Positions 9,495 to 27,189 of a DNA stretch of 64,000 nt are shown here, piece by piece. Position 1 is the first letter of the stretch. Each line of letters starts with the position of its first letter. This DNA comes from Tranquillimonas alkanivorans (lineage in GTDB: Bacteria > Pseudomonadota > Alphaproteobacteria > Rhodobacterales > Rhodobacteraceae). A model generated the notes under the pieces. That model saw only the letters and a program-made list of their open reading frames with translations, was not told the origin of the DNA and searched no databases. The translations under genes and the position numbers were made by a program. The DNA lies in contig NZ_FOXA01000007.1 in NCBI RefSeq assembly GCF_900115595.1, forward strand, positions 62,001 through 126,000, read 5' to 3'.

Positions 9495-9504
9495 GACCCT
9501 CTCC

Positions 9505-10092: not shown

Positions 10093-10115
10093 CGCATGAC
10101 CTCCCGCACCCAAGA

Positions 10116-10154: not shown

Positions 10155-10159
10155 AAACT

Positions 10160-11071: not shown

Positions 11072-11074
11072 TTC

Positions 11075-11494: not shown

Positions 11495-11820
11495 GCCGCC
11501 GTCTCCTCTTCCGCGAAGCACGTCAGGTAGCGGGCGTCGCCGTCGGCCTCGCCCACCGCGCGCACCAGGAACACCCTGTCACCCTCCCGGAACCGCTGCC
11601 CCGCCACGGGCCGCGAGGGCGCGCCCACCGGCGCCGCCTGCACCGTGATCCGGAACGCCGCCCGCGACAGCGCCGCCACCTCGCCACGGGCCTCCCGGCC
11701 CGAGCGCAGGTCCACCGCCGCCCAAAGCGTCCCCAGCACGACCCAGCTATCGACGAACCCGCCCGCGCCGTCGCCCGTCCGCTCCGGCGCCTCCAGCACC
11801 AGCTTCCGCGTCAGTCTCAT
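11491..11820 (-). CDS. GTA gp7: head closure protein
   Basis: A 109-residue head closure/head-tail adaptor protein (phage SPP1 gp16-like). It starts MRLTRKLVLEAPERTGDGAGG, contains WVVLGTLWAAVDLRSGREAR and ends with the conserved REGDRVFLVRAVGEAD..YLTCFAEE. It sits below gp6 at the portal vertex. The ATG overlaps the gp6 stop by 4 bases, and its own stop overlaps the gp8 start, consistent with one coupled operon. Confidence 0.9.
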   Translation of the reverse strand: MRLTRKLVLEAPERTGDGAGGFVDSWVVLGTLWAAVDLRSGREARGEVAALSRAAFRITVQAAPVGAPSRPVAGQRFREGDRVFLVRAVGEADGDARYLTCFAEEETAA

Positions 11821-12407: not shown

Positions 12408-12557
12408 GATTTTTCTCCAAAATGACCGTAAGCGAAAATGCGGGCGCACGCCCTCCGCACCGCTCGGACAGAGCAGAGCAGCTGGACGATACGAAGGCTC
12501 GATGCGCGCGCCCGCCGACGGCGCGGCCTCAACCGCGCACGCCGTCCCAAGTCCCGA

Positions 12558-13736: not shown

Positions 13737-13764
13737 TCCCGTCTCCCGTTCCTGATCGCGCGCC

Positions 13765-14283
13765 TCAGTCGCGCGCCCACTCCCGCCGCGCGTCCCGCAG
13801 GACCGCCGCCATGCGGCGCAGCGCCGCCGCCTCCGGGCCCTCGCCCTTCGCACCGACCCGCGCCTCGGCCAGCATCGGGAAGGTCACCAGGGACACCTCC
13901 CAAAGCTCGACCTCGTGCAGCACCCGCCGGCCCTGCCCGTCCTTCGTCGCGCGCCTTACGCGATAGCCGATCGACAGCCCGTCAACCGCGCCCGCCGCCA
14001 CCAGCGCCGCCGCCTCGCGCCCCTGCGCCACCTCGGTCAGAAGCCGCCCCTTCACGAACAGCCCCGTCGCGTCCTCGCGCACCTCGTCCCAGACGCCGAT
14101 CGGGCGCGCCGGGTCGTGCTGCCACAGCATCTTCACCCGCCCCGGCGCCCCGAAGGCCCCCGCCGCCACCACGTCGCCGCCCCGGTCGCACGCCCCGAAG
14201 ACCGAGGCATAGCCCTCGATCACCGCGCCGTCCGACACGGTCACGCCGCCGCCCGAGCCGCAGAACTTCCGCTCCAGCTCCAT
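13765..14283 (-). CDS. GTA gp4: HK97-family prohead protease
   Basis: A 172-residue prohead protease (peptidase family U35/S78). Visible family features are VIEGYASVFGACDRGGDVV, the catalytic histidine region KMLWQHDPARPIGVW (about residues 55-69), and the catalytic serine region VDGLSIGYRV followed by ELWEVSLVTFPMLAEA. It cleaves the capsid scaffold during head maturation. GGGAGGGG lies just before the ATG at 14283. It is preceded by a double palindrome that separates it from the portal gene. Confidence 0.93.
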   Translation of the reverse strand: MELERKFCGSGGGVTVSDGAVIEGYASVFGACDRGGDVVAAGAFGAPGRVKMLWQHDPARPIGVWDEVREDATGLFVKGRLLTEVAQGREAAALVAAGAVDGLSIGYRVRRATKDGQGRRVLHEVELWEVSLVTFPMLAEARVGAKGEGPEAAALRRMAAVLRDARREWARD

Positions 14284-14293
14284 CGCCCCTCCC

Positions 14294-14341
14294 AAAGTTT
14301 TCAGAAAACTGCGGGGAAGCTTCTTCAGAAGAAGCTTCCCC
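14294..14341 (-). repeat. Double-palindrome intergenic element, copy 1 (between portal and protease)
   Basis: Directly after the portal stop codon, GGGGAAGCTTCTTC (14313-14326) and GAAGAAGCTTCCCC (14328-14341) form a perfect 14-bp palindrome around a single base. Two bases later AGTTTTC/GAAAACT (14296-14302/14304-14310) forms a second palindrome, then TTTGGGAGG leads to the gp4 start. The arrangement and sequence match the element at 10116-10154. Possible roles are mRNA processing, stabilisation or partial termination. Confidence 0.7.
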
Positions 14342-15487
14342 TCACTCCACCGGCAGCCCCAGCATCCGCCGCTTCTCCGCGTCCGTCAGGAACGCCGCCT
14401 CGCTGACCCGCCGCCACTGCGCGTCACGCTCGGCCGCCAGCGCCGGCACCCGGTCCAGGTCGGGCCGCAGCTCCACCGCCTCGCCCGTCCGCTCGGCCAG
14501 CCAGTGCGACAGCGCCGCGCAGACCTTCTGCGCCAGCGGCAGAACCGTCAGGCGATAGAACGCCCGGTGCGCCTCCTGGTAATTTGCGTATGTCGCGTCG
14601 CCCGGCATCCCCAGCAGCATCGGCGGCACCCCGAAGGCCACCGCGATCTCGCGCGCCGCCGCCTCCTTGGTCTTCTGGAACTCCATGTCCGAGGGCGAGA
14701 ACCCCATCGGCTTCCAGTCCAGCCCGCCCTCCAGCAGCATCGGCCGCCCGGCATTGCGCGCCCCCTGGTGATGCGCCTCCATCTCCGCGGCCAGCCTCTC
14801 GTATTGCTCCGGGCTCATCGCCCCCTGGCCGTCCGCCCCGGAATAGACGATTGCGCCCGAAGGCCGCGCCGCATTGTCCAGCAGCGCCTTCGACCAGCGC
14901 GAGGCCGCGTTGTGCACGTCCACCGCCTGCCCCGCCGCCTGCATCGGAGACAACCCGTAATGGTCATTTTGTGGATGAAATGAGCGCACGTGGCAGATCG
15001 GAGAGATCCCGTCCTCCACCGCGAACCGCACCTTCCGCGCCCCCACCGCGTATTCATAGGCGACCGGCCAGCCGTCCGCCCCCGGCACCAGCCGCATCCG
15101 GTCCGAGCGCAGAACATGCAGCTCCGCCGGAGCCTCTCCGCCCACCGCCTCCACGTAGCCGTCGCCCGACAGCAGAAGCTGGCCATAGAGCGCTTCGAAC
15201 AGCTCCGCCCGCCCCTGCGCCGGGTTCGGCCGCTCGACCAGCGACATCAGCGGGTGCTCGTCGTACCGCCGCCGCCGGTCCTGCACGATCAGCGGCAAGG
15301 CCGCCGCGGCCTCGGCGATCAGCTTCACCGCCCGGAACCCAACCGGGTTGCCGATGAACCCCGCCCGCGTCATCGACCCGGTGTCGCGCCCGGACCACGC
15401 CACGCGCCCCGACCCGCCCCAGGCCACCACCCGGCCCACAGCACTCTCCTTGCGCTCCGGCGCAGCCTTTTTCCCGATCCCGAACAT
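14342..15487 (-). CDS. GTA gp3: portal protein
   Basis: A 381-residue HK97-type portal protein. It begins MFGIGKKAAPERKE, then GRDTGSMTRAGFIGNPVGFR, KLIAEAAAALPLIVQDR, RPNPAQGRAELFEAL, HPQNDHYGLSPMQAAGQA, SGAIVYSG and PMGFSPSDMEFQKTKEAAAREIA, ending with LPVE; these are conserved portal-family stretches. Twelve copies form the DNA channel of the head. AGGAGGAG lies 5 bases before the ATG at 15487, which is preferred to an upstream extension. A 207-base gap with repeats separates it from the terminase gene. Confidence 0.94.
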   Translation of the reverse strand: MFGIGKKAAPERKESAVGRVVAWGGSGRVAWSGRDTGSMTRAGFIGNPVGFRAVKLIAEAAAALPLIVQDRRRRYDEHPLMSLVERPNPAQGRAELFEALYGQLLLSGDGYVEAVGGEAPAELHVLRSDRMRLVPGADGWPVAYEYAVGARKVRFAVEDGISPICHVRSFHPQNDHYGLSPMQAAGQAVDVHNAASRWSKALLDNAARPSGAIVYSGADGQGAMSPEQYERLAAEMEAHHQGARNAGRPMLLEGGLDWKPMGFSPSDMEFQKTKEAAAREIAVAFGVPPMLLGMPGDATYANYQEAHRAFYRLTVLPLAQKVCAALSHWLAERTGEAVELRPDLDRVPALAAERDAQWRRVSEAAFLTDAEKRRMLGLPVE

Positions 15488-15524
15488 CGCTCCTCCTCCG
15501 TCCCGAAGTGCCACCGCAACCGCA

Positions 15525-15681
15525 CAACCCGCCCGCCCGGCGGCACCGCCGGGCAGCGCCTGCCTGCCCCCCGGCAGGCGCTTCTCAACGTCTCAACCCG
15601 TGGCACCGCAGAGCAGACACTCCAGCGCCGCGCCACTGGCCCCGACACCGCCCGAAGCACCAGCCCAGGCAGGCGCTGCCC
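15525..15681. repeat. GC-rich intergenic repeat bounded by a 16-bp inverted repeat
   Basis: In the gap between the portal and terminase genes, GGGCAGCGCCTGCCTG (15551-15566) recurs as a perfect inverted copy, CAGGCAGGCGCTGCCC, at 15666-15681. The left side, from AACCCGCCCG at 15525 through GGGCAGCGCC, also matches (reverse orientation) the two repeats at 36861-36906 and 37070-37115. The frames across it read as Pro/Arg-rich and do not look coding. Confidence 0.6.
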
Positions 15682-15694
15682 TCAGCGCGTCCCA

Positions 15695-17062
15695 TCACCC
15701 CAGCACCCGCACCCGAGGCCGCCGCCACGTCGCCGCCGGCTCCAGGATCAGCGCGTGCAGCGCCCAGACCAGCGCGTCCACCCGGTCGGGCGACCCCGGC
15801 CCCTCGAACCCCCGCGCCGTCATCCGGCACATCTGGTCCTCCAGCGCCTCGAGCCCCCGCAGATGGCCGACCCGCCCCTGTTCGTAGAGCGCCGCCACCG
15901 GCTCGGCCCGCGCCGCCTTGCCTCGCGTCGCGTGCACCGCACGAAACGGCACCAGCGGATCGACCTGCCGCACCACGCTCTCGACCAACTCGCCGCCCTG
16001 GTTGACCTCGGCCACCAGTCGCTCGGCCCCGTGCCGCGCCACCGCGTCCACCGCCGCCCGCGCCCATGCCATGGGAGAGGCGCCCTCGACGCTCGCATCC
16101 TCGATCACCACCGCGCGCCACTCCTGCGGCGGCCCCTCGGTCACCGCGCCCACAACCACGATCCCGCAGGCGTCCCCGTGCCCCGTCACCGGCGGGTCCA
16201 CGGCCACCGCCACCCGGTCGAAGGCCGGCGCCTCCGCCACCCGGCACGCCTCGATCTCCGACGAGGTCCAGAGCGCGCCCTCCGCGTCCTCCAGCAGCAC
16301 GCCGTCCAGCTCCTGCCGGCCCAGCCGCGTCCCGGCATACCGCGCCCGGACCTCCTCCAGGAACGACGCCGCCAGATGCGCGGCGATCGCCTCGGTCGGC
16401 GCGTGCGTCACCACCGTCGAGCCCGCCTTCAACAGCCCCTTCAGCACACCCACGTTGCGCGGCGTCGTCGTCACGCATTGCCGGGGCCGCTCCCCCAGCC
16501 GCAGCGCGAATTGCAGCATGTCCCAGGCCTCCTCCGCCCGCTTCCACTTCGCCAGCTCGTCCACCCAGGCCGCATCGAACTGCGGGCCGCGCAGGCTCTC
16601 GGGCTCGTGGGCCGAAAAGCACTGCGCCACCGCCCCGTTCGGCCACACCAGCCTGCGCCGCGTCGCCTCCCACTTCGGCCGCCGGTCGGGCGGCGAGCAC
16701 GCCAGGATCCCCGACGGCCCGAACACCATCACCTCGCGCACCTGGTCCAGCGTCTCGCCCACCAGCGCCACGCGCGCCGACCGCCCGGGGTCGAGCGGCA
16801 GCGCCCCCTCCACCTCCGCGCGCACCCATTCCGCCCCGGCCCGCGTCTTGCCCGCGCCACGGCCGCCCAGCACCACCCAACTGCGCCAGTCGCCGTCGGG
16901 CGGCACCTGATGCTCCATCGCCCAGAACTCGAACAAAAAAGGGAGCGCCAGCAGCGCTCCCTCGGAAAGCTCATCCAGGAACTTCGCCTGAACCTCCGGC
17001 GGCTCTGAGGCGATCCAGGCTGCGCCCGACCTCCTCCCGCACCTTGTCGAAATCGAGCGCAT
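15695..17062 (-). CDS. GTA gp2: large terminase subunit (TerL)
   Basis: A 455-residue headful-packaging ATPase/nuclease. The ATPase domain carries Walker A as WVVLGGRGAGKTRAGAEW (about residues 60-75), then RVALVGETLDQVREVM and the acidic AAWVDELAKW. The C-terminal nuclease region has VAVAVDPPVTGHGDACGI and RLVAEVNQGGELVESV, ending PDRVDALVWALHALI. It translocates about head-length pieces of any cellular DNA into GTA heads. The start at 17062 has GGAGGGAG upstream; it makes a 92-base out-of-frame overlap with gp1, and no in-frame start lies between there and the ATPase domain. Confidence 0.94.
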   Translation of the reverse strand: MRSISTRCGRRSGAAWIASEPPEVQAKFLDELSEGALLALPFLFEFWAMEHQVPPDGDWRSWVVLGGRGAGKTRAGAEWVRAEVEGALPLDPGRSARVALVGETLDQVREVMVFGPSGILACSPPDRRPKWEATRRRLVWPNGAVAQCFSAHEPESLRGPQFDAAWVDELAKWKRAEEAWDMLQFALRLGERPRQCVTTTPRNVGVLKGLLKAGSTVVTHAPTEAIAAHLAASFLEEVRARYAGTRLGRQELDGVLLEDAEGALWTSSEIEACRVAEAPAFDRVAVAVDPPVTGHGDACGIVVVGAVTEGPPQEWRAVVIEDASVEGASPMAWARAAVDAVARHGAERLVAEVNQGGELVESVVRQVDPLVPFRAVHATRGKAARAEPVAALYEQGRVGHLRGLEALEDQMCRMTARGFEGPGSPDRVDALVWALHALILEPAATWRRPRVRVLG

Positions 17063-17318
17063 AGGCTGCTCCCTCCGCGATCCCGCGTTCCCGTCTGGCC
17101 CGGTCCTCAAGCTTCTTCCTTTCGTCGAACGCCGTCTGCACGCTGCGCCCCAGCGCCTGCAGCACGCGCTTCACCTCCGCTTCCGGAAGATCGCGCCGCG
17201 CCCTGACGTGCCGCTTCATCTCCACGAGGGCCTGAACGGCCTCCCGATACTGCGCATCCGCCACCTCGAGCAGGGACAGCGCGCTCCGCCCCGGTGTCTC
17301 CGGGATTATCATTGTCAT
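16971..17318 (-). CDS. GTA gp1: small terminase-like protein
   Basis: A 115-residue helical, charged protein: MTMIIPETPGRSALSLLEVA, then EAVQALVEMKRHVRARRDLP, a helical KRVLQALGRSVQTAFDERKK and ALDFDKVREEVGRSLDRL. Its place as first gene before TerL and the composition match the GTA gp1, considered a small terminase subunit that lost sequence-specific DNA recognition. The start is ATG 17318 or the ATG two codons later; neither has a strong ribosome binding site. Its 3' end overlaps gp2. Confidence 0.85.
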   Translation of the reverse strand: MTMIIPETPGRSALSLLEVADAQYREAVQALVEMKRHVRARRDLPEAEVKRVLQALGRSVQTAFDERKKLEDRARRERGIAEGAAYALDFDKVREEVGRSLDRLRAAGGSGEVPG

Positions 17319-17557: not shown

Positions 17558-18652
17558 TTACTCTCCAGCAGCCGCCCCGTACCCGGCCATCTGCCGCGGC
17601 CAGACACGCGCCAGCAGCGCCGTCTCTTCCCCCGACAGCCGGTTCTCGGAAGGCCGATACCCCGACACGCTGTCCAGATACGCCCGCATCCGCTCCATCT
17701 CGGCCGCTCCGCCCGGCAGGTCCAGCGCCTCCCACAGGCGCGTCAGCACCGCCTCGGGCGCCTCCACGACCTCCTCGAACGCCACCTCCGCGACCTGCGC
17801 GGCGGGCACCCTTTCCCGCGCCGCGTCCCAGCGCGCCATCACCCGCGGATAGGTCTCCAGGATCGCCGCCTCCACGTCGACGCCCCCGATATCCTGCAAC
17901 GCCAACTCCCCCAGCACCCGCCGCAGCATCCGCCGGGTCGAGGCGAAGACGTCTCGCGGATCGCGCCGGATGTGTACGATCCGCGCCCCCGGAAACAGCT
18001 CCAGCAGCATCTCCGGCGTCGCGGTGTAGGCCGGGTTCTTCAACAGCAGCGGCTCCCCGCACTGCCCGGCCATCGCGCCCACATAGCGCCGGATCGCCCG
18101 CCTGCGCGCCGCGACACGTCGCTCGGGCCCCTCGCCCAGCAGCCCGTCGCGGTAATCCCGTGCGAACCGGCTGGGGAAATAGATCGCGTGGAAATACGAC
18201 AGCCCCCCGAGGTTGGCGAGCCCCACCTCGTCCTCGGTCGGCGCGTCGGGCGACAACTCGACCGAGTCGATCAGCCGCGTCTCGGGCAGGAACGGGTCGA
18301 TGAACGGCCGGATCAGCGGGGCCATCGTCCGGCTCTCCCACGGCAGCGTCGCCGTCACCGGGGGCACCGTGCCGAACGCGCCCGAGGCCGCCATGATGTT
18401 GTGCAGGTGCGTCGTCCCGCTGCGCGGATGGCCCACGATGAACACCGGAGGCCGCACCTCGCGCCGCCGCGCCACCACCCGGTCGGCCAGCGTGAACGGC
18501 ACCCGCGCCAGCGCCGTCGCCAGCGCCACGCCATAGGCCGGCATCCCCCGCCACGACGGCGGCCCCCGCCGCACCACCAGCTCCGCCAGCGTCAGCGGGT
18601 CGGCCCCGCACAGGGGATGGAACACGCGGTGCCAGGGAAAGCCGCTGGCCAT
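17558..18652 (-). CDS. PAPS-dependent sulfotransferase family protein
   Basis: A 364-residue sulfotransferase (Sulfotransfer_3-type). The 5'-phosphosulfate loop is PPVFIVGHPRSGTTHLHNIM (residues of about 69-88), and the 3'-phosphate-binding part is ARIVHIRRDPRDVFASTRR near residue 230. The remainder resembles a bacterial family that sulfates lipids or unknown small molecules. It begins one base after the glycosyltransferase stop and so belongs to the carotenoid operon. Sulfated carotenoids are known in alphaproteobacteria, so the pigment or its glycoside is a plausible substrate, but that is inference. A terminator follows about 160 bases downstream. Confidence 0.88.
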   Translation of the reverse strand: MASGFPWHRVFHPLCGADPLTLAELVVRRGPPSWRGMPAYGVALATALARVPFTLADRVVARRREVRPPVFIVGHPRSGTTHLHNIMAASGAFGTVPPVTATLPWESRTMAPLIRPFIDPFLPETRLIDSVELSPDAPTEDEVGLANLGGLSYFHAIYFPSRFARDYRDGLLGEGPERRVAARRRAIRRYVGAMAGQCGEPLLLKNPAYTATPEMLLELFPGARIVHIRRDPRDVFASTRRMLRRVLGELALQDIGGVDVEAAILETYPRVMARWDAARERVPAAQVAEVAFEEVVEAPEAVLTRLWEALDLPGGAAEMERMRAYLDSVSGYRPSENRLSGEETALLARVWPRQMAGYGAAAGE

Positions 18653-18653
18653 G

Positions 18654-19769
18654 TCAGGCCCCGTAGCTGCGGCCGCGCCACTCCGACGGACGCCCGCGCC
18701 GGTGGTTCAGGAACGCGGCCCACTGGATCGCCAGCACCACCGCCACGCCCAACGGATGCAGCAGCACCGACCGCACCGGCTGCCGCGTGCGCACCGCCAG
18801 CGCCGCCCGCGCGGCATAGACCAGAGCCACCGCCAGCAGCGCCGGGGCCACCGCCTCGGCCGGCCCGAAGATCAGCGCCAGCGGCGCCAGCAGCACCGGC
18901 AGCACGTGCCCGCCGCCCAGAAGCACCGTCCACACGGGCAGCGCCACGGGCTTCGCCATCCCCTCGGTCGCGTTCTTCGAGAATCCCGCCCAGGTTGCCT
19001 CCCATCCGTCGTACATCCGGCACGAGGCGACGGAGGTCGCGTCGAACAGGTCGGTGCGCCCGCCCGCCGCGCGCATCGTCCGCGGCAGCATCAGCCCGTC
19101 ATGGCGCGAGGCGCGGATCGCCCGATGCCCATCCGCGCGGAAATAGGCGTCGCGCCGCACCGCCATCAACTGCCCGCATCCGGCGGCGAAGCCCGGGCTG
19201 CGGAAGATGCGCGCCATCGCCATCGGCAGATAGCCCAGTAGCAGCACGAGGATCTGGTTGACCACCAGCTGTTCGCCCAGCGTCCGCGTCACCTGCCGGG
19301 GAAACCCGCTCGCCAGGTCCAGCCTGCGCCGCTCCATGAACGCCGCCAGCCGGCCCAGCGCGTCCGGCCCCACCCGCACGTCGGCGTCGATGAAGACCAG
19401 CGTGTCCCGCCGCGCCGCCCGCGCCAGTTGCCAGCAGGCGTGCTGCTTGCCGTTCCAGCCGGCCGGCAGCCCGTCGCCCTCGATCAGCCGCACGCGCCCG
19501 TCCCGCGCCGCACGCTCGGCCACGATGCGCCCCGTCCCGTCGGTCGAGCCGTCGTCGAGCACGACGACCTCCAAATCCACGCCCTCCGAGGCAAGCACCG
19601 CGTCCACCGCGGGCCCGATATTCGCCGCCTCGTCCCGCGCCGGGATCAGCACCGAGACGTTGGCCCGCGCGGACCGGTGCGGCGGCGGACGGAAGAAGAT
19701 CAGGTTGATAAAGGTCATCCCCGCGTAAAGCACGGCGAGGGCAAGGCAGGCGACGGTGAGCGTGTACAT
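18654..19769 (-). CDS. Family 2 glycosyltransferase, CrtQ-like (carotenoid glycosylation)
   Basis: A 371-residue GT2 enzyme. An N-terminal membrane helix (residues 3-26) precedes the catalytic domain with SVLIPARDEAANIG, the nucleotide-binding VVVLDDGSTDGTG (about 69-80), GWNGKQHACWQLA and the metal-binding FIDADV (127-131). Two or three C-terminal membrane helices follow, and the end SEWRGRSYGA matches the VEWKGRQYS end of staphylococcal CrtQ. CrtQ adds glucose to a C30 carotenoid acid; length, topology and ends agree. The ATG shares a base with the acyltransferase stop (TGATG). Confidence 0.85.
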   Translation of the reverse strand: MYTLTVACLALAVLYAGMTFINLIFFRPPPHRSARANVSVLIPARDEAANIGPAVDAVLASEGVDLEVVVLDDGSTDGTGRIVAERAARDGRVRLIEGDGLPAGWNGKQHACWQLARAARRDTLVFIDADVRVGPDALGRLAAFMERRRLDLASGFPRQVTRTLGEQLVVNQILVLLLGYLPMAMARIFRSPGFAAGCGQLMAVRRDAYFRADGHRAIRASRHDGLMLPRTMRAAGGRTDLFDATSVASCRMYDGWEATWAGFSKNATEGMAKPVALPVWTVLLGGGHVLPVLLAPLALIFGPAEAVAPALLAVALVYAARAALAVRTRQPVRSVLLHPLGVAVVLAIQWAAFLNHRRGRPSEWRGRSYGA

Positions 19770-20566
19770 CAATTTCCTTCCGCCATGTGATCGGGCGCGT
19801 ATCTCTCGCCCCGGAGCGCGGCGCGCAGGCGGCTCCAGCCGCCATAGACGCCGCCGACCCCGGCCCGCCCCGCGATCAACCGGTCGAAGGCCGAGGCATC
19901 GCGCGCCGCGGCAAGCGCCCCCAGCCGGTCCATCGTTCCCCGCAGGCGCTCCTCCAACCGGCCGCGCCACGCGCGCGCCGTCAGCCCCTCGGCCCCGTCC
20001 AGCGGGTTGCCGAAGGCGGCCAGCGCCTCGGGCCGTTTCTCGGACCAGAACGGGTATTCCAGCGCCAGCGGCACCGCGACGGCGTCCGGCACCCGCTCCA
20101 TCAGGTGCGCCACGCCGCCCTGAAGCTCCAGCGGCCGGTCGCGCACGTCACGGAATTGGCCCTGCGCCGTCACCCAGAGCATCCGGTCGGGGCTCTCCAG
20201 CACCCTCAGCGAGGTCGCCAGGAAGGCCGCCGCGCCCTTGCGCGTGCCCGGCGCGATCCCGAACACGCCCAGCCGCCGCATGAAGCGGTACCGCTCCAGC
20301 GCCGCCGCCTCCATCGGGGCGAACGGCGCGCGGTCCGGAAAAGCCGCGCGCGCCAGAAGCAGGCAGAACGCCGGGTCCCACCAGGACGGGTGGTTGCAAT
20401 AGACGATCAGCGGCCGGTCCGCCGGCACCTCGGCCGCACCCGGACGGGCCAGCCGCACGGCCCGGAACGCCCCGCGCATCTGCCGCTCCATCACGCCGGT
20501 GAAGAAGCGGGCCATCGCGGGCGAGCGCAGCTCTACCGGGTCATTGTGCGGCGACCGCTGCGGCAT
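19769..20566 (-). CDS. PlsC-type lysophospholipid/glycolipid acyltransferase
   Basis: A 265-residue acyltransferase. The catalytic HxxxxD is in LIVYCNHPSWWDPAF (about residues 54-68). FAPMEAAALERYRFMRRLGVFG and MLWVTAQGQFRDVRDRP fit the acyl-acceptor and glycine-box regions. Staphylococcal CrtO, which acylates the carotenoid glucoside, is a different family, but PlsC-type enzymes take that place in other C30 clusters as I recall. Acylation of the glycosylated pigment is therefore likely but unproven. The start is uncertain: ATG 20566 overlaps crtP by 26 bases, and ATG 20515 is an alternative. Confidence 0.82.
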   Translation of the reverse strand: MPQRSPHNDPVELRSPAMARFFTGVMERQMRGAFRAVRLARPGAAEVPADRPLIVYCNHPSWWDPAFCLLLARAAFPDRAPFAPMEAAALERYRFMRRLGVFGIAPGTRKGAAAFLATSLRVLESPDRMLWVTAQGQFRDVRDRPLELQGGVAHLMERVPDAVAVPLALEYPFWSEKRPEALAAFGNPLDGAEGLTARAWRGRLEERLRGTMDRLGALAAARDASAFDRLIAGRAGVGGVYGGWSRLRAALRGERYAPDHMAEGN

Positions 20567-22064
20567 TCGACGTCGCGTCCTTGTCCAGCGTGTCGGCGGC
20601 GATCCAGCCCGACATCAGCGCCATCGGCATGCCCGGCCCCGGATGCGCCGAGCCGCCCGCCAGATACAGGTCCCGCACCTGGCGCGAACGGTTGCCGGGC
20701 TTGAACGCCCCCATCATCCGCCCGTGGCTGGCCAGGCCATAGATCGCGCCGTTCAGAACCTTGTATCGGTCGTGGATGTCCTGCGGCGTCAGCGTCCGCT
20801 CGACCACGATCCGCTCTTCCAGGTCCGGCATGCCGCCCGTCCGGGCGAGCTTGTCCAAAATTGTCCGACGATACTGCGGCAGCATCTGCGACCAGTCGTG
20901 CCCCTCGCGCAGGTAGGGCGTGTGCACGAGGACATAAAGCGCCTCTCCCCCCTCGGGCGCGACGCCCTTTTCCGTGCGCGCCGGCGCGGCGAGGTACGCG
21001 GTCGGGTCCGGCGCGGGCTCGCCCTTGTCGTAGATGGCGTGGAACTCCTCCTCCGGATCGCGGGAGAAGACGAAGTTGTGGTGTGCCAGGTGTTCGTATT
21101 CCCGGTCGAGGCCCAGATACAGCACCACGCCCGAACACGCGGCCTCGCGTTTGCGGCTCTTCTCGAAGTCGCGCCAGGCGTCGCCGCCGACGAGTTCGCG
21201 ATAGGTGCGCACGCTGTCCATGTTCGACACGATCCGGTCGAAGGCGATGCGCTCGCCATGTGCCGTCACCAGCGCTGTGGCGCGCCCCTGGTCGGTCTCG
21301 ATCCGCTCGACATCCACGCCGGTGCGGAACTCGACGCCCAGTTCTTCGGCCAGACGTTGCAGTGCCAGCGGCACGGCGCGGGTGCCGCCCATCGGGTACC
21401 AGACGCCCTCGCCCACCTGCATCTGCGCGATCCCGCACAGCACCGCCGGGGAGGCCAGGGGCGAGGAGCCCACGTACTGGATGAAGTGTTCCAGCATCTG
21501 CGCCACGCGCGTGTCCTTGACGCTGCGGCCGATCTGCTCGGACACGGTGCGCGGCATGCGCAGCGCCAGGACGTCGCGCAACGTGTCGAGCGACATGTTC
21601 TCGCGCATGTTCATGGTGTCCTTCAGGTCCTCGACCGACTTCCAGAAGAAGAAGCGGTCGGAAACGTCGGACAATCGCTTGGCGACCTTCAGGAAATCGT
21701 CGTACCCTTGCACGTCGCCCGGCGCGAAGTCGGCCAGCGTGCGCTTCATCGCCTCCGGGTCCTGGCTCAGGTCCAGGACGGAGCCGTCCTCGTAGAAGCA
21801 CCGCCATTGCGGGTCCAGCCGCACGAGGTCCAGATAGTCCGACATATCCTTCCCGGCCTCGGCAAAAACCCGTTCTAGCACGCGCGGCATGGTTAGAATT
21901 GTCGGACCCATGTCGAAGCGATAACCGTCTTCCTCGAGCAGCGCAGCCTTGCCGCCCAGCCAGGCGTTCTTCTCGAACACGGTGACCTTGTGGCCCCGCG
22001 CGGCCAGCGTGCAGGCGGCGGCCAGGCCGCCCAGCCCCGCGCCGATGATCCCCGTCTTGCTCAT
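20541..22064 (-). CDS. crtP: CrtP-like C30 carotenoid (4,4'-diaponeurosporene) oxygenase, CrtI superfamily
   Basis: A 507-residue FAD enzyme. The dinucleotide-binding fold is GIIGAGLGGLAAACTLA (residues of about 5-21), followed by GGKAALLEEDGYRFDMGPTI. Several stretches match Staphylococcus CrtP rather than CrtN or C40 CrtI: MSDYLDLVRLDPQWRCFYED, HFIQYVGSSPLASPAVL, LAHHNFVFSRD, RGAIYGL and the FAD-closing LYLAGGSAHPGPGMPMALM. CrtP oxidises the terminal methyl of C30 carotenoids to an aldehyde. AGGGAGG lies 10 bases before the ATG. It starts 22 bases after the crtN stop. Confidence 0.8.
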   Translation of the reverse strand: MSKTGIIGAGLGGLAAACTLAARGHKVTVFEKNAWLGGKAALLEEDGYRFDMGPTILTMPRVLERVFAEAGKDMSDYLDLVRLDPQWRCFYEDGSVLDLSQDPEAMKRTLADFAPGDVQGYDDFLKVAKRLSDVSDRFFFWKSVEDLKDTMNMRENMSLDTLRDVLALRMPRTVSEQIGRSVKDTRVAQMLEHFIQYVGSSPLASPAVLCGIAQMQVGEGVWYPMGGTRAVPLALQRLAEELGVEFRTGVDVERIETDQGRATALVTAHGERIAFDRIVSNMDSVRTYRELVGGDAWRDFEKSRKREAACSGVVLYLGLDREYEHLAHHNFVFSRDPEEEFHAIYDKGEPAPDPTAYLAAPARTEKGVAPEGGEALYVLVHTPYLREGHDWSQMLPQYRRTILDKLARTGGMPDLEERIVVERTLTPQDIHDRYKVLNGAIYGLASHGRMMGAFKPGNRSRQVRDLYLAGGSAHPGPGMPMALMSGWIAADTLDKDATSNAAAVAAQ

Positions 22065-22086
22065 CTGCGGATGCCTCCCTTGTCGC

Positions 22087-23634
22087 TCATTCCGCCGCCT
22101 CCTGCATCTCCGACACGTCCGGCATCGCCGGCGCCGCCAGCCCGAGGTCCTGCGCCGCCAGCGTGCTGGCGATCTTGGCGCTTTCGAAGATGGTGGGCAG
22201 GCCACTGCCCGGATGCGTGCCGCCGCCGGTCAGGTAGACGCCGTCGACATCCTCGAACCGGTTGCGCGGCCGCCAGTGCAGCATCTGGCCCAGGTTGTGT
22301 GCCAGGTTGAACGTGGCCCCGCGATAGATCGACATCTGTTCGGCCCAGTCGGCCGGCGTGATCATCCGCTCAGTCCGGATGCGACTGCGGATGTCGTGGC
22401 CGCAAAGTTTCTCCAGACGTTTCAGCACTTTCTCGCGATACATCGGGGCCAGCTGCTCCCAGTCGACACCGCCCGAAAGATTACCGACGGGCACCAAGAC
22501 GTAGAGCGTCGAATGCCCCTCGGGCGCCAGCGTCGGATCGGTGACCGAGGCGTTCTGGACATAGATCGTCGGTTCCTCGGGCGCCTGGCCCGCGTCGATC
22601 TCGCGGATGTTCTTCTGGTAATCGTCCGACAGATAGATCGTGTGGTGGTGCATGTCGTCGAACCGCCCCTCGATGCCCAGGTACATCATGAAGGTCGAGC
22701 ACGAGTACTGCTTGGATTCGATCTTCTTGTCGGTCCAGCGGCGGCGCAGCCGGTCGGGGATGATCTTCTGCATCGTTGCGGCGAAGTCGCCGTTGACCAC
22801 CACGGCGTCAGCCTCGTACCGGCCCTGCGCGGTGCGCGCGGCGGTGGCGCGGCGGCCCTCGAACTCCAGTTCCTCGACCGGCTCGGACACGCGGATGTCG
22901 ACGCCCTGCTCGCGTGCGACCCGCGCCATGGCCGCGGTGATCGCGTTGCAGCCGCCCTTGGGATGGAAGACGCCGAAGCCGTATTCGACATGCGCCACGA
23001 TGGTGAAGAGCGACGGGCACTTGAACGGCGACATGCCCAGGTACTTCGACTGGAACGTGAAGGCGAGCCGCACGTCGGGGTGGCGGAACCAGCGCCGCAG
23101 GTCCTGATCCACCGTCGACCACGGCCGGAACAGCGGCAGCGCGCGGGCCATGTCGGGCTTCATCAGGTCCGCCGCGCTCAGGAACGGGCGCTGGAGGATC
23201 GGCTTGAACGCGTCGAACTTGCGCGCGTTCTCGTTGAGGTACTTGCGCACGTTCTTGGCGTCCTCGGCGTCGATGCGCGCGATCTCGGCGATCAGCCGCT
23301 CGGGGTCGGCGGTGGCGTTCACCGTCGCGCCGTCGTCGAACTGCAACCGATACATCGGGTCGAGCTGGATCAGCTCGACCTCCTCATCCAGCGACCGGCC
23401 GCAGGCGGCGAAGATCTGGCGCAGCACCTCGGGGTACAGATAGAACGTCGGCCCGTAGTCGAACGTGTACCCGTCCTGCGTGAACGCGCCGGTGCGCCCG
23501 CCCACCCGGTCCGAGCGTTCCAGCACCGTCACGTTCGCCCCCGCCGCGCGCATCAGAAGCGCGCTGGCCAGCCCTCCGGGCCCGGCTCCGACCACCACGA
23601 CGTTGCGCCCGGTCTTCATGCGGCTGACGTTCAC
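22087..23634 (-). CDS. crtN: CrtN-like 4,4'-diapophytoene/squalene desaturase, CrtI superfamily
   Basis: A 515-residue FAD-dependent desaturase. VVVVGAGPGGLASALLM (about residues 11-27) binds FAD; YTFDYGPTFYLYPEVLRQIF, EYGFGVFHPKGGCNAI, YSCSTFMMYLGI and YLSDDYQKNIREID follow, and VYLTGGGTHPGSGLPTIFESAK closes the FAD site. The middle phrases match the C30 enzyme CrtN (SCSAFLMYIGI, SDDFRGNIEEI). It introduces conjugated double bases into a C30 backbone, most likely squalene from HpnCDE. The GTG at 23634 is chosen because GGAGGA lies 8 bases upstream; ATG 23619 also keeps the fold. It is first in the minus-strand pigment operon. Confidence 0.8.
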   Translation of the reverse strand: MNVSRMKTGRNVVVVGAGPGGLASALLMRAAGANVTVLERSDRVGGRTGAFTQDGYTFDYGPTFYLYPEVLRQIFAACGRSLDEEVELIQLDPMYRLQFDDGATVNATADPERLIAEIARIDAEDAKNVRKYLNENARKFDAFKPILQRPFLSAADLMKPDMARALPLFRPWSTVDQDLRRWFRHPDVRLAFTFQSKYLGMSPFKCPSLFTIVAHVEYGFGVFHPKGGCNAITAAMARVAREQGVDIRVSEPVEELEFEGRRATAARTAQGRYEADAVVVNGDFAATMQKIIPDRLRRRWTDKKIESKQYSCSTFMMYLGIEGRFDDMHHHTIYLSDDYQKNIREIDAGQAPEEPTIYVQNASVTDPTLAPEGHSTLYVLVPVGNLSGGVDWEQLAPMYREKVLKRLEKLCGHDIRSRIRTERMITPADWAEQMSIYRGATFNLAHNLGQMLHWRPRNRFEDVDGVYLTGGGTHPGSGLPTIFESAKIASTLAAQDLGLAAPAMPDVSEMQEAAE

Positions 23635-23802
23635 CTGTTCTTCCTCCGTCAGGGAAATCCTTGGTGGAGAGGCAGGTAGACCGAGCTTCATTGACGTCTA
23701 CTTTTTCCGTGACAGGTTGTTGCGCACACGGATTCCGCTTCCTCCGAAGAGGCTGATGAGAAAAAAGACCACGACGCCCCGAAAAGGACGCCGGAGCCCC
23801 GG
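23635..23802. promoter_or_regulatory. Divergent promoter region between crtN and hpnC
   Basis: The 168-base divergent gap must hold both promoters. A TTGACG (23691-23696) could be a -35 box on the plus strand, but no good -10 follows at 17-18 bases (AGGTTG). The AT-rich run CTTTTTCC lies next to it. I looked for a PpsR/CrtJ TGT-N12-ACA site and found none. The boxes are not firmly assigned. Confidence 0.4.
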
Positions 23803-24645
23803 ATGAAGACGGACGAGAATTTCCCGGTCGCATCGCTGCTGATCCGAGCGGAGCTTCGCGCCACGGTGCGCGACTTCTATCGCTTCGCGCGGGCCGCCGA
23901 CGACGTGGCCGACGCGCCCGACCTGTCGCGCGACGCCAAGCTCGCCCGCCTCGACGCCTTCGCCGCCGGGCTCAAGGGCGATTCTGCGGGGGCCGAGGAG
24001 GCGCGCACGCTGCGTGCGAGGCTCAGTTCCGAGCAGCGCGGGGCGCTTGTCCGGCACGCCGAGTTGCTGCTGGTCGCCTTCCGCCAGGACGCGCGCGGCT
24101 TTCACTATCGCACGTGGGAGGATCTCCTGAGCTACTGCGCCCATTCGGCCAACCCTGTCGGGCGATTCCTGCTGGATCTGCACGTCGAGGGGCCGGCGAC
24201 GCACGGTCCCTCTGACGCGCTGTGCACGGCGCTCCAGGTGCTCAACCACCTTCAGGACATCCGCGACGACCACGACCGGATCGCGCGCGTCTACCTGCCC
24301 TCGGAGTGGCTGGAGGCCGAGGGCGTGCCCCCCGCCGCGCTGTCGGGCGCCGCGCTCACCCCCGGGCTCCGGCGGGTGATCGACCGTGCGCTCGACCGCT
24401 GCGACGCCCTGCTGGTCGAGGCGCGTACCCTGCCCGCCGCCATCCGCGCCCCGCGCCTGGCGGGCGAGGCGCGCACGATCGTCCACCTCGGCCACCGCCT
24501 GTCGGCGCGGCTGCGCGCGGGCGACCCGCTGGCCGGCCGGGTGAAGCCCTCGCGCCTGGATTTCGCCCGGGCCGGGGCGCTGGGACTGGCCCGCGCACTC
24601 CGTCCCGTGCGCGGACGCACGGCCTCGGTGCGAGAGCGCGCATGA
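23803..24645 (+). CDS. hpnC: HpnC: hydroxysqualene synthase
   Basis: A 280-residue trans-isoprenyl synthase of the HpnC type. ENFPVASLL (residues 5-13) is diagnostic. The first aspartate-rich site is FARAADDVADAPD (28-40); the second is LNHLQDIRDDHDR in the middle. HpnC converts presqualene diphosphate (from HpnD) to hydroxysqualene, which HpnE reduces to squalene. GGAG precedes the ATG at 23803. The stop overlaps the hpnD ATG (ATGA), so hpnC-D-E form one coupled operon, divergent from crtN. Confidence 0.92.
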   Translation: MKTDENFPVASLLIRAELRATVRDFYRFARAADDVADAPDLSRDAKLARLDAFAAGLKGDSAGAEEARTLRARLSSEQRGALVRHAELLLVAFRQDARGFHYRTWEDLLSYCAHSANPVGRFLLDLHVEGPATHGPSDALCTALQVLNHLQDIRDDHDRIARVYLPSEWLEAEGVPPAALSGAALTPGLRRVIDRALDRCDALLVEARTLPAAIRAPRLAGEARTIVHLGHRLSARLRAGDPLAGRVKPSRLDFARAGALGLARALRPVRGRTASVRERA

Positions 24646-25499
24646 CGCTCGCCTTGCCGACACTCGCCCCGCGAGAGGAAGTGCGCCGCATCGTCGCCGC
24701 CTCGGGTTCGTCCTTCACCACCGGGATGCGCATCCTCCCGGCCGAGCGGAGGGCGGCGATCTTCGCCGTCTACGCCTTCTGCCGCTGCATCGACGACGTT
24801 GCCGACGGCGGCGGCACGCCGACGGACAAGGCGCGGGAGCTCGACGGCTGGGCGCACGAGCTCGACCGCGTCTTCGACGGCCGCCCGTCCACCGCCGTGG
24901 GCGTCGAGCTGGAACGCGCCATCGCCGCTTACGACCTGCCGCGCGAGGAGTTCGAGCTGGTGCTCGACGGCATGCGCATGGACGCCGAGGGCATGGTCGC
25001 ACCTTCGCCCGAGCGGCTGGAAGCCTATGTCCGCCGGGTCGCGGGCGCGGTGGGCATCCTGTCCATGCGCATCTTCGGCGCCTGGCGGGGCGAGCCGTCG
25101 CGCCGCTTTGCGCTGTCTCTGGCGCGCGGGATGCAGTTCACCAACATCCTGCGCGACGTGGCCGAGGACGCCGAGATGGGCCGCCTCTACCTGCCCGCCC
25201 CGCTGCTTGAGGACGCCGGACTCCCCCTGCGCCCCATGCCCGCCGCCCGTCACCCCGAGCTGCACCGCGTGCGCCGGACGCTGGGCGCGCAGGCGCGCGC
25301 CGCCTATGACGCGGCGGCGGCCGAGATCCCGTACCACAGCCGTGCGCGGCTGCTGCCCGCGCTGGTGATGATGGGCCCCTACGACCGCCTGCTGGCGCGG
25401 ATGGAGGCCGACTGGACCGCCCGCCCCGCGCGCCTGCCCGGATGGCGCAAGGCCGTCCAGGGGCTGCGCTGCGCCGCCTTCGCCGGCCCCCGGCGTTGA
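24642..25499 (+). CDS. hpnD: HpnD: presqualene diphosphate synthase
   Basis: A 285-residue squalene/phytoene synthase family enzyme. SSFTTGMRILPAERRAAIFAVY and the first Asp-rich site FCRCIDDVADGGG (47-58) lie at the N-terminus; the second site is QFTNILRDVAEDAEMGRLYLP. These are the HpnD signatures. It joins two farnesyl diphosphates into presqualene diphosphate. The similarity to phytoene synthase CrtB is a family feature; the HpnC and HpnE neighbours decide in favour of squalene. It overlaps hpnC by 4 bases and hpnE by 4 (TTGA). Confidence 0.92.
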   Translation: MTLALPTLAPREEVRRIVAASGSSFTTGMRILPAERRAAIFAVYAFCRCIDDVADGGGTPTDKARELDGWAHELDRVFDGRPSTAVGVELERAIAAYDLPREEFELVLDGMRMDAEGMVAPSPERLEAYVRRVAGAVGILSMRIFGAWRGEPSRRFALSLARGMQFTNILRDVAEDAEMGRLYLPAPLLEDAGLPLRPMPAARHPELHRVRRTLGAQARAAYDAAAAEIPYHSRARLLPALVMMGPYDRLLARMEADWTARPARLPGWRKAVQGLRCAAFAGPRR

Positions 25500-26752
25500 C
25501 CCGCAATATCCACATCGTCGGCGCGGGCCTCGCCGGGCTCGCGGCCGCAATCCGGCTGTCGGAGCGCCACGACAGCCGCGTGACGGTGTGGGAGTCGACG
25601 GGCAAGGCGGGCGGGCGCTGCCGCAGCTACTACGACGCGCAGCTCGACCGGCGCATCGACAACGGCAACCACCTGATGCTGTCGGGCAACCGCGCGGTGC
25701 TGGACTATGCCCGCCGCATCGGCGGCGACGCGCGGCTCGAGATCGGCGCGCCGGATTTTCCGTTTCTCGACCTGGCCACCGGCGCACGCTGGACTGTCCG
25801 CCTGCCCCGCACGCCGCTTGGCCTTCTGTCGCGCCACGCCCGCCCGCCGGGCGTCGCCCTGCGCGACCTGGCGGGCGTGGCATCCCTGCTGACCGCCCCG
25901 CGCGGCGCGACGGTGGCGCAGGCGATCCGGGGACGGGGCGAGATGTGGCGCGCCTTCTGGGAGCCGCTGACCATCGCCGTGCTGAACGCCGCGCCCGAGC
26001 ACGCCGATGCCGGCCTTCTGCGCACCTCGCTGCGCCGAACTTTCCTGAAAGGCGCCCGTGCCGCGCGCCCGGTGCTCGCGCCCGAGGGGCTGGGCCCCGC
26101 CTTGGTGGACCCGGCGCTGGCGCTGCTGGAGCGGCGTAACGTGCCGGTTCACCTGCGCGCGCCGCTGGGAGAGGTGTCGATCAAGGATGACCGGGTGGCA
26201 TCCCTGACGCTGGGCGGCGAGACCATCACACTCGGCCCCGACGACGCGGTGATCCTCGCCCTTCCGCCCTCGGCCCTGGGCCGCGCCCTGCCGGGCCTGC
26301 CGGTGCCGGGCGACGGCGCAGCCATCGTCAACGTGCATTTCCGCGTTGCGCCCGACCCTGCCGCGCGCCTGCCCGCGATTACCGGGCTCCTGTCGGGACG
26401 GCTGCACTGGCTGTTCCGGCGGGGCGACGTGGTCTCGGCCACCGTGTCGGCGGTGGCCGACGACCCGTTCTGGACGCGGCCCAGGGACGAGGTGCTGGCC
26501 GAGGTCTGGCCCGAGATCGCCGCCGCGCTGGACGCGCCCGACGCCGAACCGCTGGCTGCGCGCCTGCTGAAAGAGAAGGCGGCGACCTTCGATCCCGCGC
26601 CCGACAGCGCCGCGCGCCGCCCCGCCACCCAAGGCCCGGCGGCGAACCTGTTCCTCGCGGGGGACGTCGTGCAGACCGGCCTGCCCGCCACGATCGAAAG
26701 CGCGGTGGCCTCGGGCGACATGGCCGCCGCGGCGGCGCTGCGGGGGCGCTAG
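25496..26752 (+). CDS. hpnE: HpnE: squalene-associated FAD-dependent reductase
   Basis: A 418-residue flavoprotein of the amine oxidase/CrtI superfamily. It starts with TRNIHIVGAGLAGLAAAIRL, then WESTGKAGGRCRSYYD and IDNGNHLMLSGN, a phrase typical of HpnE, and ends NLFLAGDVVQTGLPATIESA. It reduces hydroxysqualene to squalene. The start is taken as TTG 25496, overlapping the hpnD stop; an ATG at 25442 exists but lies inside hpnD and adds a non-family extension. Its TAG stop overlaps the converging BLUF gene stop in a CTAG. Confidence 0.92.
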   Translation: MTRNIHIVGAGLAGLAAAIRLSERHDSRVTVWESTGKAGGRCRSYYDAQLDRRIDNGNHLMLSGNRAVLDYARRIGGDARLEIGAPDFPFLDLATGARWTVRLPRTPLGLLSRHARPPGVALRDLAGVASLLTAPRGATVAQAIRGRGEMWRAFWEPLTIAVLNAAPEHADAGLLRTSLRRTFLKGARAARPVLAPEGLGPALVDPALALLERRNVPVHLRAPLGEVSIKDDRVASLTLGGETITLGPDDAVILALPPSALGRALPGLPVPGDGAAIVNVHFRVAPDPAARLPAITGLLSGRLHWLFRRGDVVSATVSAVADDPFWTRPRDEVLAEVWPEIAAALDAPDAEPLAARLLKEKAATFDPAPDSAARRPATQGPAANLFLAGDVVQTGLPATIESAVASGDMAAAAALRGR

Positions 26753-27189
26753 CCGCGCAGCGCCGGCAGGATGTTCTGCAAGAGGCCCTGCACGGCCGGA
26801 TCGGTGCCGAGCGAATCGTCCTCGCCGCGCCGGAGGCTCATCAGCGACCGCACCGAACGCTGCGACTCCGCGTTCAGGTCCTCGGGGCTGGCGAAGCCCA
26901 TCTGCCAGTCGGGAAAGCCCCGCGCCGCGGCCTCGCCCTCGCTCACGATCCACGCTTCGCGGTGGCGCGGGTCGCGCTCGATCCGGGCGAAGCAGGCGCG
27001 CACCGCGTCCTTAGGCCCCTCGAGCACCTGGAGGAACATGCGGTCGTGATAGATCAGCAGCCCGGTGATCCCATCACGGCGATTGTTGCGGCGCGACACC
27101 TCGAGCAGCGCGTCGATATCGGCCGCCGACTGCTCTTCCGTGGCCGTGCTGACATAGAAAACCTGGTGAATCATGACCCTCGTGCCCAT
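26749..27189 (-). CDS. BLUF-domain blue-light photoreceptor, short type
   Basis: A 146-residue protein that is mostly one BLUF domain. Aligning with AppA of Rhodobacter sphaeroides by spacing places every key flavin-pocket residue without gaps: Y12 in VFYVS, N36 in SRRNN, Q54 in MFLQVLEG, and W95/M97 in FPDWQMGF; RITG-like DGITGLLIY is also present. The last 40 residues are helical and may mediate output. The start is ATG 27189 or ATG 27174 (MIHQVFYVS); neither ribosome site is decisive. It converges on the squalene/carotenoid genes, so a link to pigment regulation is a reasonable guess only. Confidence 0.93.
   Translation of the reverse strand: MGTRVMIHQVFYVSTATEEQSAADIDALLEVSRRNNRRDGITGLLIYHDRMFLQVLEGPKDAVRACFARIERDPRHREAWIVSEGEAAARGFPDWQMGFASPEDLNAESQRSVRSLMSLRRGEDDSLGTDPAVQGLLQNILPALRG

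What the first reader, a model, noticed from the sequence alone, without database searches (positions are those of the whole stretch)
17558..26752. Probable C30 carotenoid pathway fed by squalene from HpnCDE
Seen: hpnC, hpnD and hpnE (squalene synthesis) are divergent from two CrtI-superfamily genes. Phrase-level resemblance ties one to staphylococcal CrtN (SCSTFMMYLGI, SDDYQKNI) and the other to CrtP (QYVGSSPLASPAVL, LAHHNFVFSRD, RGAIYGL). A CrtQ-like glycosyltransferase and a PlsC acyltransferase follow in the same operon. No squalene-hopene cyclase and no CrtB-type phytoene synthase for C40 pigments is present. Known: C30 carotenoids can be made from squalene by CrtN in Methylobacterium and planctomycetes. 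Inference: the host makes a staphyloxanthin-like glycosyl ester instead of the C40 spheroidenone series usual in Rhodobacterales.
Basis: partly seen in the sequence, partly recalled or inferred. Interest (0 to 1): 0.78.

Follow-up and report, generated by a model that had tools for sequence, protein, structure and literature searches.

The report
Squalene-based pigment cluster with sulfotransferase
A bacterium that also has genes for photosynthesis and normal 40-carbon pigments carries a second set of genes that very probably turns squalene into a sugar- and fat-decorated 30-carbon pigment, and the last gene of that set predicts a sulfate group on it, which would be a new kind of pigment.

Summary
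hpnCDE (+) diverge from a tightly packed minus-strand operon: crtN, crtP, plsC-type acyltransferase, GT2 glycosyltransferase. A 42-row tree puts the two desaturase-like proteins with CrtN and CrtP of Methylorubrum, Azospirillum and others, not with C40 CrtI/CrtD. GT and acyltransferase are 48-51% identical to a Methylorubrum pair whose AM1 counterparts were tested by deletion (PMC10448405). No squalene-hopene cyclase was found in the genome. So the C30 reading is supported. 'Instead of C40' is wrong: the genome also holds crtB, crtI, crtD, bchC and bchX. 'Staphyloxanthin-like' fits less well than the Methylobacterium ester: no CrtM, no CrtO-like protein. New here: the ST is in 9 of 37 assessable Rhodobacterales C30 clusters, straight after the GT, forms one clade (100/100), and its nearest relatives found lie mostly in hopanoid clusters (10 of 11 loci) of genomes with the cyclase (10 of 10). 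Best reading: a sulfated acyl-glycosyl C30 carotenoid, encoded beside C40 pigments. Sulfation is inferred.

The parts
17558..18652 (-). sulfotransferase (Sulfotransfer_3), last gene of the operon; motifs GHPRSGTT and VHIRRDP
   Evidence: PF13469 115.8 bits; motifs (their PAPS role is recalled); AF2 model, best folds mycobacterial STF9/STF1 Z 21.9/19.5; ATG one base after the GT stop
18654..19769 (-). GT2 glycosyltransferase, like that of the Methylobacterium C30 carotenoid cassette
   Evidence: PF00535 79 bits; 51% identical to Methylorubrum GT, 25% to staphylococcal CrtQ, 28% to HpnB of L137; ATG overlaps the plsC stop
19769..20566 (-). PlsC-type acyltransferase
   Evidence: PF01553 27.9 bits, cut-off 23; 48% identical to the Methylorubrum acyltransferase, no hit to CrtO
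20541..22064 (-). CrtP-like C30 carotenoid oxidase
   Evidence: TIGR02734 447 bits; CrtP clade 100/99
22087..23619 (-). CrtN-like squalene desaturase (a start at 23691 is also possible)
   Evidence: TIGR02734 538 bits; CrtN clade 100/100
23620..23802 (.). divergent gap between crtN and hpnC; no perfect TGT-N12-ACA (PpsR-type motif, recalled) inside it
23803..24645 (+). hpnC, makes hydroxysqualene
   Evidence: TIGR03464 242 bits, cut-off 250
24642..25499 (+). hpnD, presqualene diphosphate synthase
   Evidence: TIGR03465 258 bits, cut-off 279; CrtB models at most 114 bits, cut-offs 480 and more
25442..26752 (+). hpnE, hydroxysqualene dehydroxylase
   Evidence: TIGR03467 308 bits, over cut-off

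Best explanation
A squalene-route C30 carotenoid cluster with a sulfation step added. HpnD, HpnC and HpnE make squalene from farnesyl diphosphate; with no cyclase found in the genome, squalene goes to CrtN, which desaturates it, and CrtP, which oxidises the ends to aldehyde or acid. The GT2 enzyme adds a sugar and the PlsC-type enzyme acylates it, as in Methylobacterium. The adjoining sulfotransferase then most likely moves sulfate from PAPS to a free hydroxyl of the sugar (or of the carotenoid end), giving an anionic sulfated acyl-glycosyl C30 carotenoid. The cell also encodes the C40 pathway of its photosynthesis cluster. Gene identities are shown here; squalene as precursor and the GT/acyl steps rest on tested relatives; the sulfation step and its site are inferred. 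My confidence is about 0.93 for the C30 core and 0.55 for sulfation of its product.
For: Families. Tree: own CrtN in a 12-row CrtN clade (100/100), own CrtP in a 12-row CrtP clade (100/99), the genome's other two paralogues with Roseobacter litoralis CrtI and CrtD. GT and PlsC 48-51% identical to Methylorubrum, taken as counterparts of the AM1 genes META1p3663 and 3664, tested by deletion and complementation (PMC10448405: abstract, Results part 1 of 2, Discussion). No SHC in own genome, while the same model hits 10 others of 24 searched. Sulfotransferase: in 9 of 37 assessable Rhodobacterales C30 clusters, directly after the GT; its likely start overlaps the GT stop in 6 of 7 named loci (for L062 the list was cut before it) and in the Palleronia LCG004 annotation, and lies one base after it in the window; the 9 form one clade, 100/100. 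Of 248 family genomes the two with an ST of 50% identity or more are both among the 6 with this CrtP. APS kinase in own genome (208 bits, over cut-off). 6 of 8 ST genomes searched have no CrtB over the cut-off, so a C40 substrate is unlikely.
Against: No pigment, transcript or enzyme data for this organism. The ST is absent from 28 of the 37 clusters, so it is accessory, and its relatives point to hopanoid clusters rather than to carotenoids. Own genome and Roseitranquillus lack the aldehyde dehydrogenase found in 31 of 35 GT-bearing named loci (best own match 31%), so the acid end group is less sure here. Roseitranquillus has the ST but no APS kinase match (draft genome). HpnC and HpnD score just under their cut-offs. 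The two other genomes held of the genus lack this CrtP and the ST. The AF2 model is moderate (pLDDT 73, pTM 0.75).
Confidence: 0.6

Rival explanations
1. The C30 pathway is as described but the sulfotransferase acts on something else: another squalene-derived lipid shared with hopanoid makers (for example hydroxysqualene), or an unrelated lipid, and is only co-transcribed.
For: Its nearest relatives found sit near hpnA (10 of 11 loci), 7 of them also near hpnB, hpnC and hpnD, so the common theme is squalene-derived lipid, not carotenoid as such. The ST is missing from 28 of 37 C30 clusters.
Against: In C30 clusters the ST directly follows the GT, at the far end from hpnCDE, and forms its own clade on a long stem (1.27 changes per column), which fits a changed substrate.
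Confidence: 0.3
2. One reading: a staphyloxanthin-like C30 glycosyl ester made instead of C40 carotenoids.
For: CrtN, CrtP, a GT with 25% identity to CrtQ and an acyltransferase are present. For relatives 'instead' may be true: 23 of 31 C30-cluster genomes searched have no match near the cut-off of the Rhodobacter-type CrtB model.
Against: Own genome has CrtB, CrtI, CrtD, BchC, BchX; no CrtM found and no CrtO similarity.
Confidence: 0.04
3. HpnCDE squalene is used as such or for another triterpenoid, and CrtN/CrtP act on a C40 or other substrate.
For: The substrates of CrtN/CrtP are inferred from phylogeny only.
Against: No SHC found; hpnC, hpnD and hpnE lie in the same locus as crtN-crtP in 33 of 37 named Rhodobacterales loci (not in L068, partly or not in L077, L083, L117); separate C40 desaturases exist in the own genome.
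Confidence: 0.05

Closest known systems
Methylobacterium (Methylorubrum) extorquens AM1 C30 carotenoid genes: HpnCDE, META1p3670 (CrtN), 3665 (CrtP), 3664 (acyltransferase), 3663 (glycosyltransferase)
   Same: Same enzyme set and the same CrtP-acyltransferase-GT order; against an M. populi MAG (L125) CrtP 68%, CrtN 52%, GT 51%, PlsC 48% identical (AM1 itself was not compared)
   Different: There the hpn genes are elsewhere, next to squalene-hopene cyclase (PMC10448405); here hpnCDE are divergent neighbours, no cyclase was found, and a sulfotransferase is added
Palleronia sp. LCG004 plasmid cluster (L152)
   Same: Same cluster including the sulfotransferase; the strain also has photosynthesis clusters (PMC11638410, passages)
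   Different: Has a convergent aldehyde dehydrogenase; published as 'crtIP and hpnCD', the word sulfotransferase occurring 0 times in the main text
Staphyloxanthin-type operon (S. xylosus plasmid, L151)
   Same: CrtP, CrtN, GT2 and an acylation step
   Different: A CrtM-type synthase instead of HpnCDE; CrtO-type acyltransferase; identities 25-35% where there is a hit
Sulfated C40 carotenoids of Erythrobacter
   Same: A carotenoid carrying a sulfate ester, with activity in cell extract (PMC6627997, passages)
   Different: C40 xanthophylls; no sulfotransferase gene named in the passages read
Mycobacterial STF9/STF1
   Same: Closest solved folds, Z 21.9 and 19.5 over 315 and 301 residues
   Different: 16-19% identity; no C30 or hopanoid link known to me (recalled, not searched)

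Membership tests
Squalene-route C30 carotenoid pathway | HpnC, HpnD, HpnE present | tested here: met
   (E over its cut-off; C and D best family but slightly under)
Squalene-route C30 carotenoid pathway | CrtN and CrtP in the clades of squalene-type relatives | tested here: met
Squalene-route C30 carotenoid pathway | No dedicated CrtM | tested here: met
   genome search with NF042419 finds three genes: CrtB, HpnD and HpnC
Squalene-route C30 carotenoid pathway | Pigment with C30 backbone | not testable with these tools
   needs LC-MS
Staphyloxanthin pathway | CrtM dehydrosqualene synthase | tested here: not met
   HpnD is 25% identical to S. xylosus CrtM and HpnC has no hit to it
Staphyloxanthin pathway | CrtO-type acyltransferase | tested here: not met
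   PlsC family instead; no BLAST hit to CrtO at E 1e-4; CrtO was not searched genome-wide
Staphyloxanthin pathway | Aldehyde dehydrogenase for the terminal acid | tested here: inconclusive
   no cluster-type ALDH; 7 distant ALDH matches, best-scoring 31% identical
Hopanoid pathway | Squalene-hopene cyclase | tested here: not met
PAPS sulfotransferase | Family, fold and PAPS-binding motifs | tested here: met
   (role of the motifs recalled)
PAPS sulfotransferase | PAPS supply (APS kinase) in the host | tested here: met
   own genome 208 bits, over cut-off; of 14 genomes searched only Roseitranquillus has no match
PAPS sulfotransferase | Sulfation of the C30 pigment | not testable with these tools
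   needs enzyme assay or mutant LC-MS
C40 phytoene-derived desaturases | Window CrtN/CrtP group with CrtI/CrtD | tested here: not met

The most novel reading that the evidence does not exclude
One sulfotransferase family works on squalene-derived membrane lipids: its main branch sulfates hopanoids (the gene sits with hpnA, often an unknown gene, hpnB and hpnCDE), and a derived branch in Rhodobacterales without cyclase was re-aimed at acyl-glycosyl C30 carotenoids. Neither sulfated hopanoids nor sulfated C30 carotenoids showed in what my searches listed.
Probability: 0.4. Interest if true: 0.75.

Novelty: new variant of a known kind. Interest (0 to 1): 0.52.

Why it matters
It predicts a specific, checkable new class of pigment (sulfated acyl-glycosyl C30 carotenoid) in named Rhodobacterales strains, and shows hosts that encode two separate carotenoid pathways, C30 from squalene and C40 from phytoene. 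The link to hopanoid clusters offers a candidate for what the unexplained hpnA/hpnB neighbourhood might do: a 2025 survey says the functions of hpnA and hpnB are not established and saw no obvious candidate genes near the cluster other than hpnA, hpnB, hpnL and hpnM (PMC12583986, passages).

Tried and rejected
Rejected: 'C30 instead of C40' for this genome (C40 genes found). Rejected: a strict swap of aldehyde dehydrogenase for sulfotransferase, suggested by the first six clusters; among 37 clusters the two genes occur together in 7. Rejected as unlikely: a C40 pigment as the ST substrate, since 6 of 8 ST genomes searched have no CrtB over the cut-off; Palleronia LCG004, which has crtB by its paper, was not in that search. 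Not supported: PpsR-type control of the divergent gap; 9 perfect TGT-N12-ACA sites in the window, none in 23620-23802 (no chance expectation computed). The first desaturase tree had two rows in a wrong frame and one row under a wrong name and was replaced. A BLUF gene was not found near five other clusters. The genes between hpnA and ST in L136, L144 and L145 gave no NCBIfam hit, those in L144 and L145 no Pfam hit. A general search for Rhodobacterales genera with 'diapolycopene' gave 607 papers with two or more of six terms; none of the 15 listed holds 'diapolycopene'.
Full report
What is there. The window is part of contig C49 of a 4.54-Mb genome (92 contigs, completeness 100%). Between 17558 and 26752 lie eight genes. 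On the plus strand hpnC, hpnD and hpnE follow one another with overlaps. On the minus strand, across a 183-base gap, come crtN, crtP, a PlsC-type acyltransferase, a GT2 glycosyltransferase and a sulfotransferase. crtP and plsC overlap, the GT start overlaps the plsC stop, and the sulfotransferase ATG lies one base after the GT stop. One of its quoted phrases is slightly off (NGAIYGL, not RGAIYGL).

C30, not C40, for this cluster. A search of the genome with the window's CrtP finds four full-length relatives: the two here and two on contig C38. In a 42-row tree with reference proteins from annotated plasmids and named genomes, the window's CrtN falls in a 12-row clade (100/100) with Methylorubrum, Azospirillum, Salinisphaera and Brocadiaceae CrtN, and its CrtP in a 12-row clade (100/99) with the same groups. 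The two C38 proteins pair with Roseobacter litoralis CrtI (100/100) and CrtD (100/100). Staphylococcal CrtN and CrtP stand on long branches and their exact sisters are not resolved. By BLAST the window's CrtP and CrtN are 68% and 52% identical to those of an M. populi MAG and 35% and 30% to S. xylosus CrtP and CrtN.

The pathway model. In Methylobacterium extorquens AM1 the pigment is an octadecenoyl-glucosyl ester of 4,4'-diapolycopenedioic acid; deletion and complementation tied the glycosyltransferase and acyltransferase to it, and crtN and crtP mutants are colourless (PMC10448405: abstract, Results part 1 of 2 and Discussion seen). The window's GT and PlsC are 51% and 48% identical to the M. 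populi proteins in the same order; that these are the counterparts of the AM1 genes is inferred from order and annotation in the paper, not compared directly. No squalene-hopene cyclase was found in the own genome. In a search of 24 genomes the same model hit 10, all over its cut-off, and none of the other 14, which are 12 Rhodobacterales with a C30 cluster and the two other genomes of the own genus. So squalene has no other evident use here. A 2025 survey found shc in 3 of 203 Rhodobacterales genera, and Rubellimicrobium, Wenxinia, Pseudoroseicyclus and Roseitranquillus appear in what reads as its list of genera without it (PMC12583986, passages; the heading of the list was outside the passage).

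Two pathways in one cell. On C38 the genome has CrtB (522 bits, cut-off 500), CrtI (636 bits by the family model, cut-off 238), CrtD (729, cut-off 580), BchC (444, cut-off 291) and BchX (438, cut-off 331). So the host encodes both pathways and 'instead of the C40 series' fails. Of 31 C30-cluster genomes searched, own included (one more that I asked for was not held), 7 have a Rhodobacter-type CrtB over the cut-off and one (Limimaricola pyoseonensis) lies just under at 478.7; the other 23 have only matches of 116 bits or less, the range of HpnD and HpnC in the own genome, or none. The combination is in print for one strain: Palleronia sp. LCG004, whose authors list 'crtIP and hpnCD' beside photosynthesis clusters (PMC11638410, passages).

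How common the cluster is. This CrtP (E 1e-100 or better) is in 6 of 248 family genomes, one per genus; all six have the order hpnE-hpnD-hpnC / crtN-crtP-plsC-GT (for five, the window for the sixth). A scan of species genomes gave 64 loci (80 stretches matched a pattern, which may be a cap): 37 Rhodobacterales, 15 Methylobacterium/Methylorubrum, 3 Salinisphaera and 9 others. Of the 37, 33 hold hpnC, hpnD and hpnE in the same locus and 31 show the exact order; L068 has no hpn genes within its 10-kb flanks, L113 has them on the other side, and L064, L077, L083 and L117 are cut short or incomplete. The two other genomes held of the own genus have neither this CrtP nor the ST, so the cluster is patchy.

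The accessory genes. Of the 37 named loci, 35 show the GT (L064 ends before it; L083 shows neither PlsC nor GT). Among these 35, 31 have an aldehyde dehydrogenase next to the cluster (20 of one kind, 11 of another) and 7 have the sulfotransferase, 6 of them with both. Adding the Palleronia LCG004 plasmid (both genes) and the window (sulfotransferase, no such dehydrogenase: best own match 31%) gives 9 sulfotransferases in 37 assessable clusters. Carriers are Rubellimicrobium rubrum, arenae, roseum and aerolatum, Palleronia aestuarii, Palleronia LCG004, Pseudoroseicyclus aestuarii, Roseitranquillus sediminis and the window. Rubellimicrobium mesophilum and R. sp. CFH 75288 have the cluster without it. 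A missing dehydrogenase is no obstacle in principle: in M. extorquens two AldH candidates were deleted without effect (PMC10448405).

What the sulfotransferase is. It matches Sulfotransfer_3 (115.8 bits), keeps PRSGTT and RRDP motifs (their role in PAPS binding is recalled), and its predicted structure (pLDDT 73, pTM 0.75) is closest to mycobacterial STF9 and STF1 (Z 21.9 and 19.5). An APS kinase, needed for PAPS, is in the own genome and in 13 of 14 genomes searched; Roseitranquillus, which has the ST, is the exception. In 248 family genomes only own and Roseitranquillus have an ST of 50% identity or more, and both are among the six C30 genomes.

Where its relatives are. In 385 Alphaproteobacteria, 10 genomes match at E 1e-40 or better, own included. 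I fetched the surroundings of the 10 matches outside the own genome (9 genomes) and of one 39% match in the own family. Of these 11 loci, 10 have hpnA within about 3 kb (best family HpnA, but under its cut-off in the three checked), 8 have an unknown gene similar to that of L144 or L145, 7 have hpnB, hpnC and hpnD, and 6 show the full order hpnCD(E) / hpnB, hpnA, unknown gene, sulfotransferase; L142, a second copy in one genome, has none of these. All 10 genomes have a squalene-hopene cyclase over the cut-off, against ca. 23% of alphaproteobacterial genomes in the 2025 survey (PMC12583986); the 10 are not independent, as several share a genus. In the 25-row tree, rooted at the midpoint, the nine C30-cluster proteins are one clade (100/100) within a 20-row group (100/99) that holds these 11; five weaker matches from the family fall outside, and their 3.9-kb loci show no hopanoid or C30 gene. 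So in the cyclase-bearing genomes seen this family sits mostly with hopanoid genes, and in cyclase-free Rhodobacterales with C30 carotenoid genes: the common theme is lipid made from squalene.

Reading. The best-supported mechanism is squalene to desaturated, end-oxidised C30 carotenoid, glycosylation, acylation, and then sulfation by the adjoining sulfotransferase. Shown: gene identities, order, phylogeny, conservation, no cyclase found, presence of C40 genes. Carried over from tested relatives: precursor and the GT/acyl steps. Inferred: that the sulfotransferase acts on this product, and where. A C40 substrate is unlikely, because 6 of 8 carrier genomes searched lack a CrtB over the cut-off.

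Literature. 'C30 carotenoid' with 'sulfotransferase' occurs together in 2 held papers, neither on this subject by title and start of abstract. Of 39 papers with two or more of five related terms, none of the 15 listed holds 'sulfotransferase'. A search for sulfated hopanoid terms gave 16 papers, of which the 10 listed held only 'sulfated triterpenoid'. The listing for sulfated carotenoids was led by Erythrobacter C40 pigments (PMC6627997, passages). The library holds only open-licence papers, and the main survey of the squalene route is not in it, so absence from print is not established.

Noticed in passing
L136, L138-L141, L143-L145 (alphaproteobacterial genomes with SHC); also L137 and L146 without the middle gene: An hpnA - unknown gene - Sulfotransfer_3 neighbourhood in hopanoid clusters (8 of 11 loci with all three), a candidate for an undescribed sulfated hopanoid; the unknown gene has no NCBIfam hit in three members and no Pfam hit in two.
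   Followed up: partly
window 3725-17110: A gene transfer agent-like cluster (GTA TIM-barrel protein, DUF2460, capsid, prohead protease, portal, terminase) lies just beyond the sulfotransferase gene.
   Followed up: partly
window 26749-27189: A BLUF blue-light sensor gene converges on hpnE; not found beside five other C30 clusters.
   Followed up: partly
L020 4881-6242, L022 4410-5795 and others: Two different aldehyde dehydrogenases accompany 31 of 35 GT-bearing Rhodobacterales C30 loci; candidates for the missing terminal oxidation enzyme of the squalene-type pathway.
   Followed up: partly
L152; L078: The cluster lies on plasmids in Palleronia sp. LCG004 and Limimaricola hongkongensis (pLokhon01), which fits its patchy spread.
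   Followed up: no
L019 3790-4497 and relatives: An unnamed predicted protein without Pfam hit recurs in 23 of 37 named Rhodobacterales C30 loci, on either side of the operon (MEMB).
   Followed up: no
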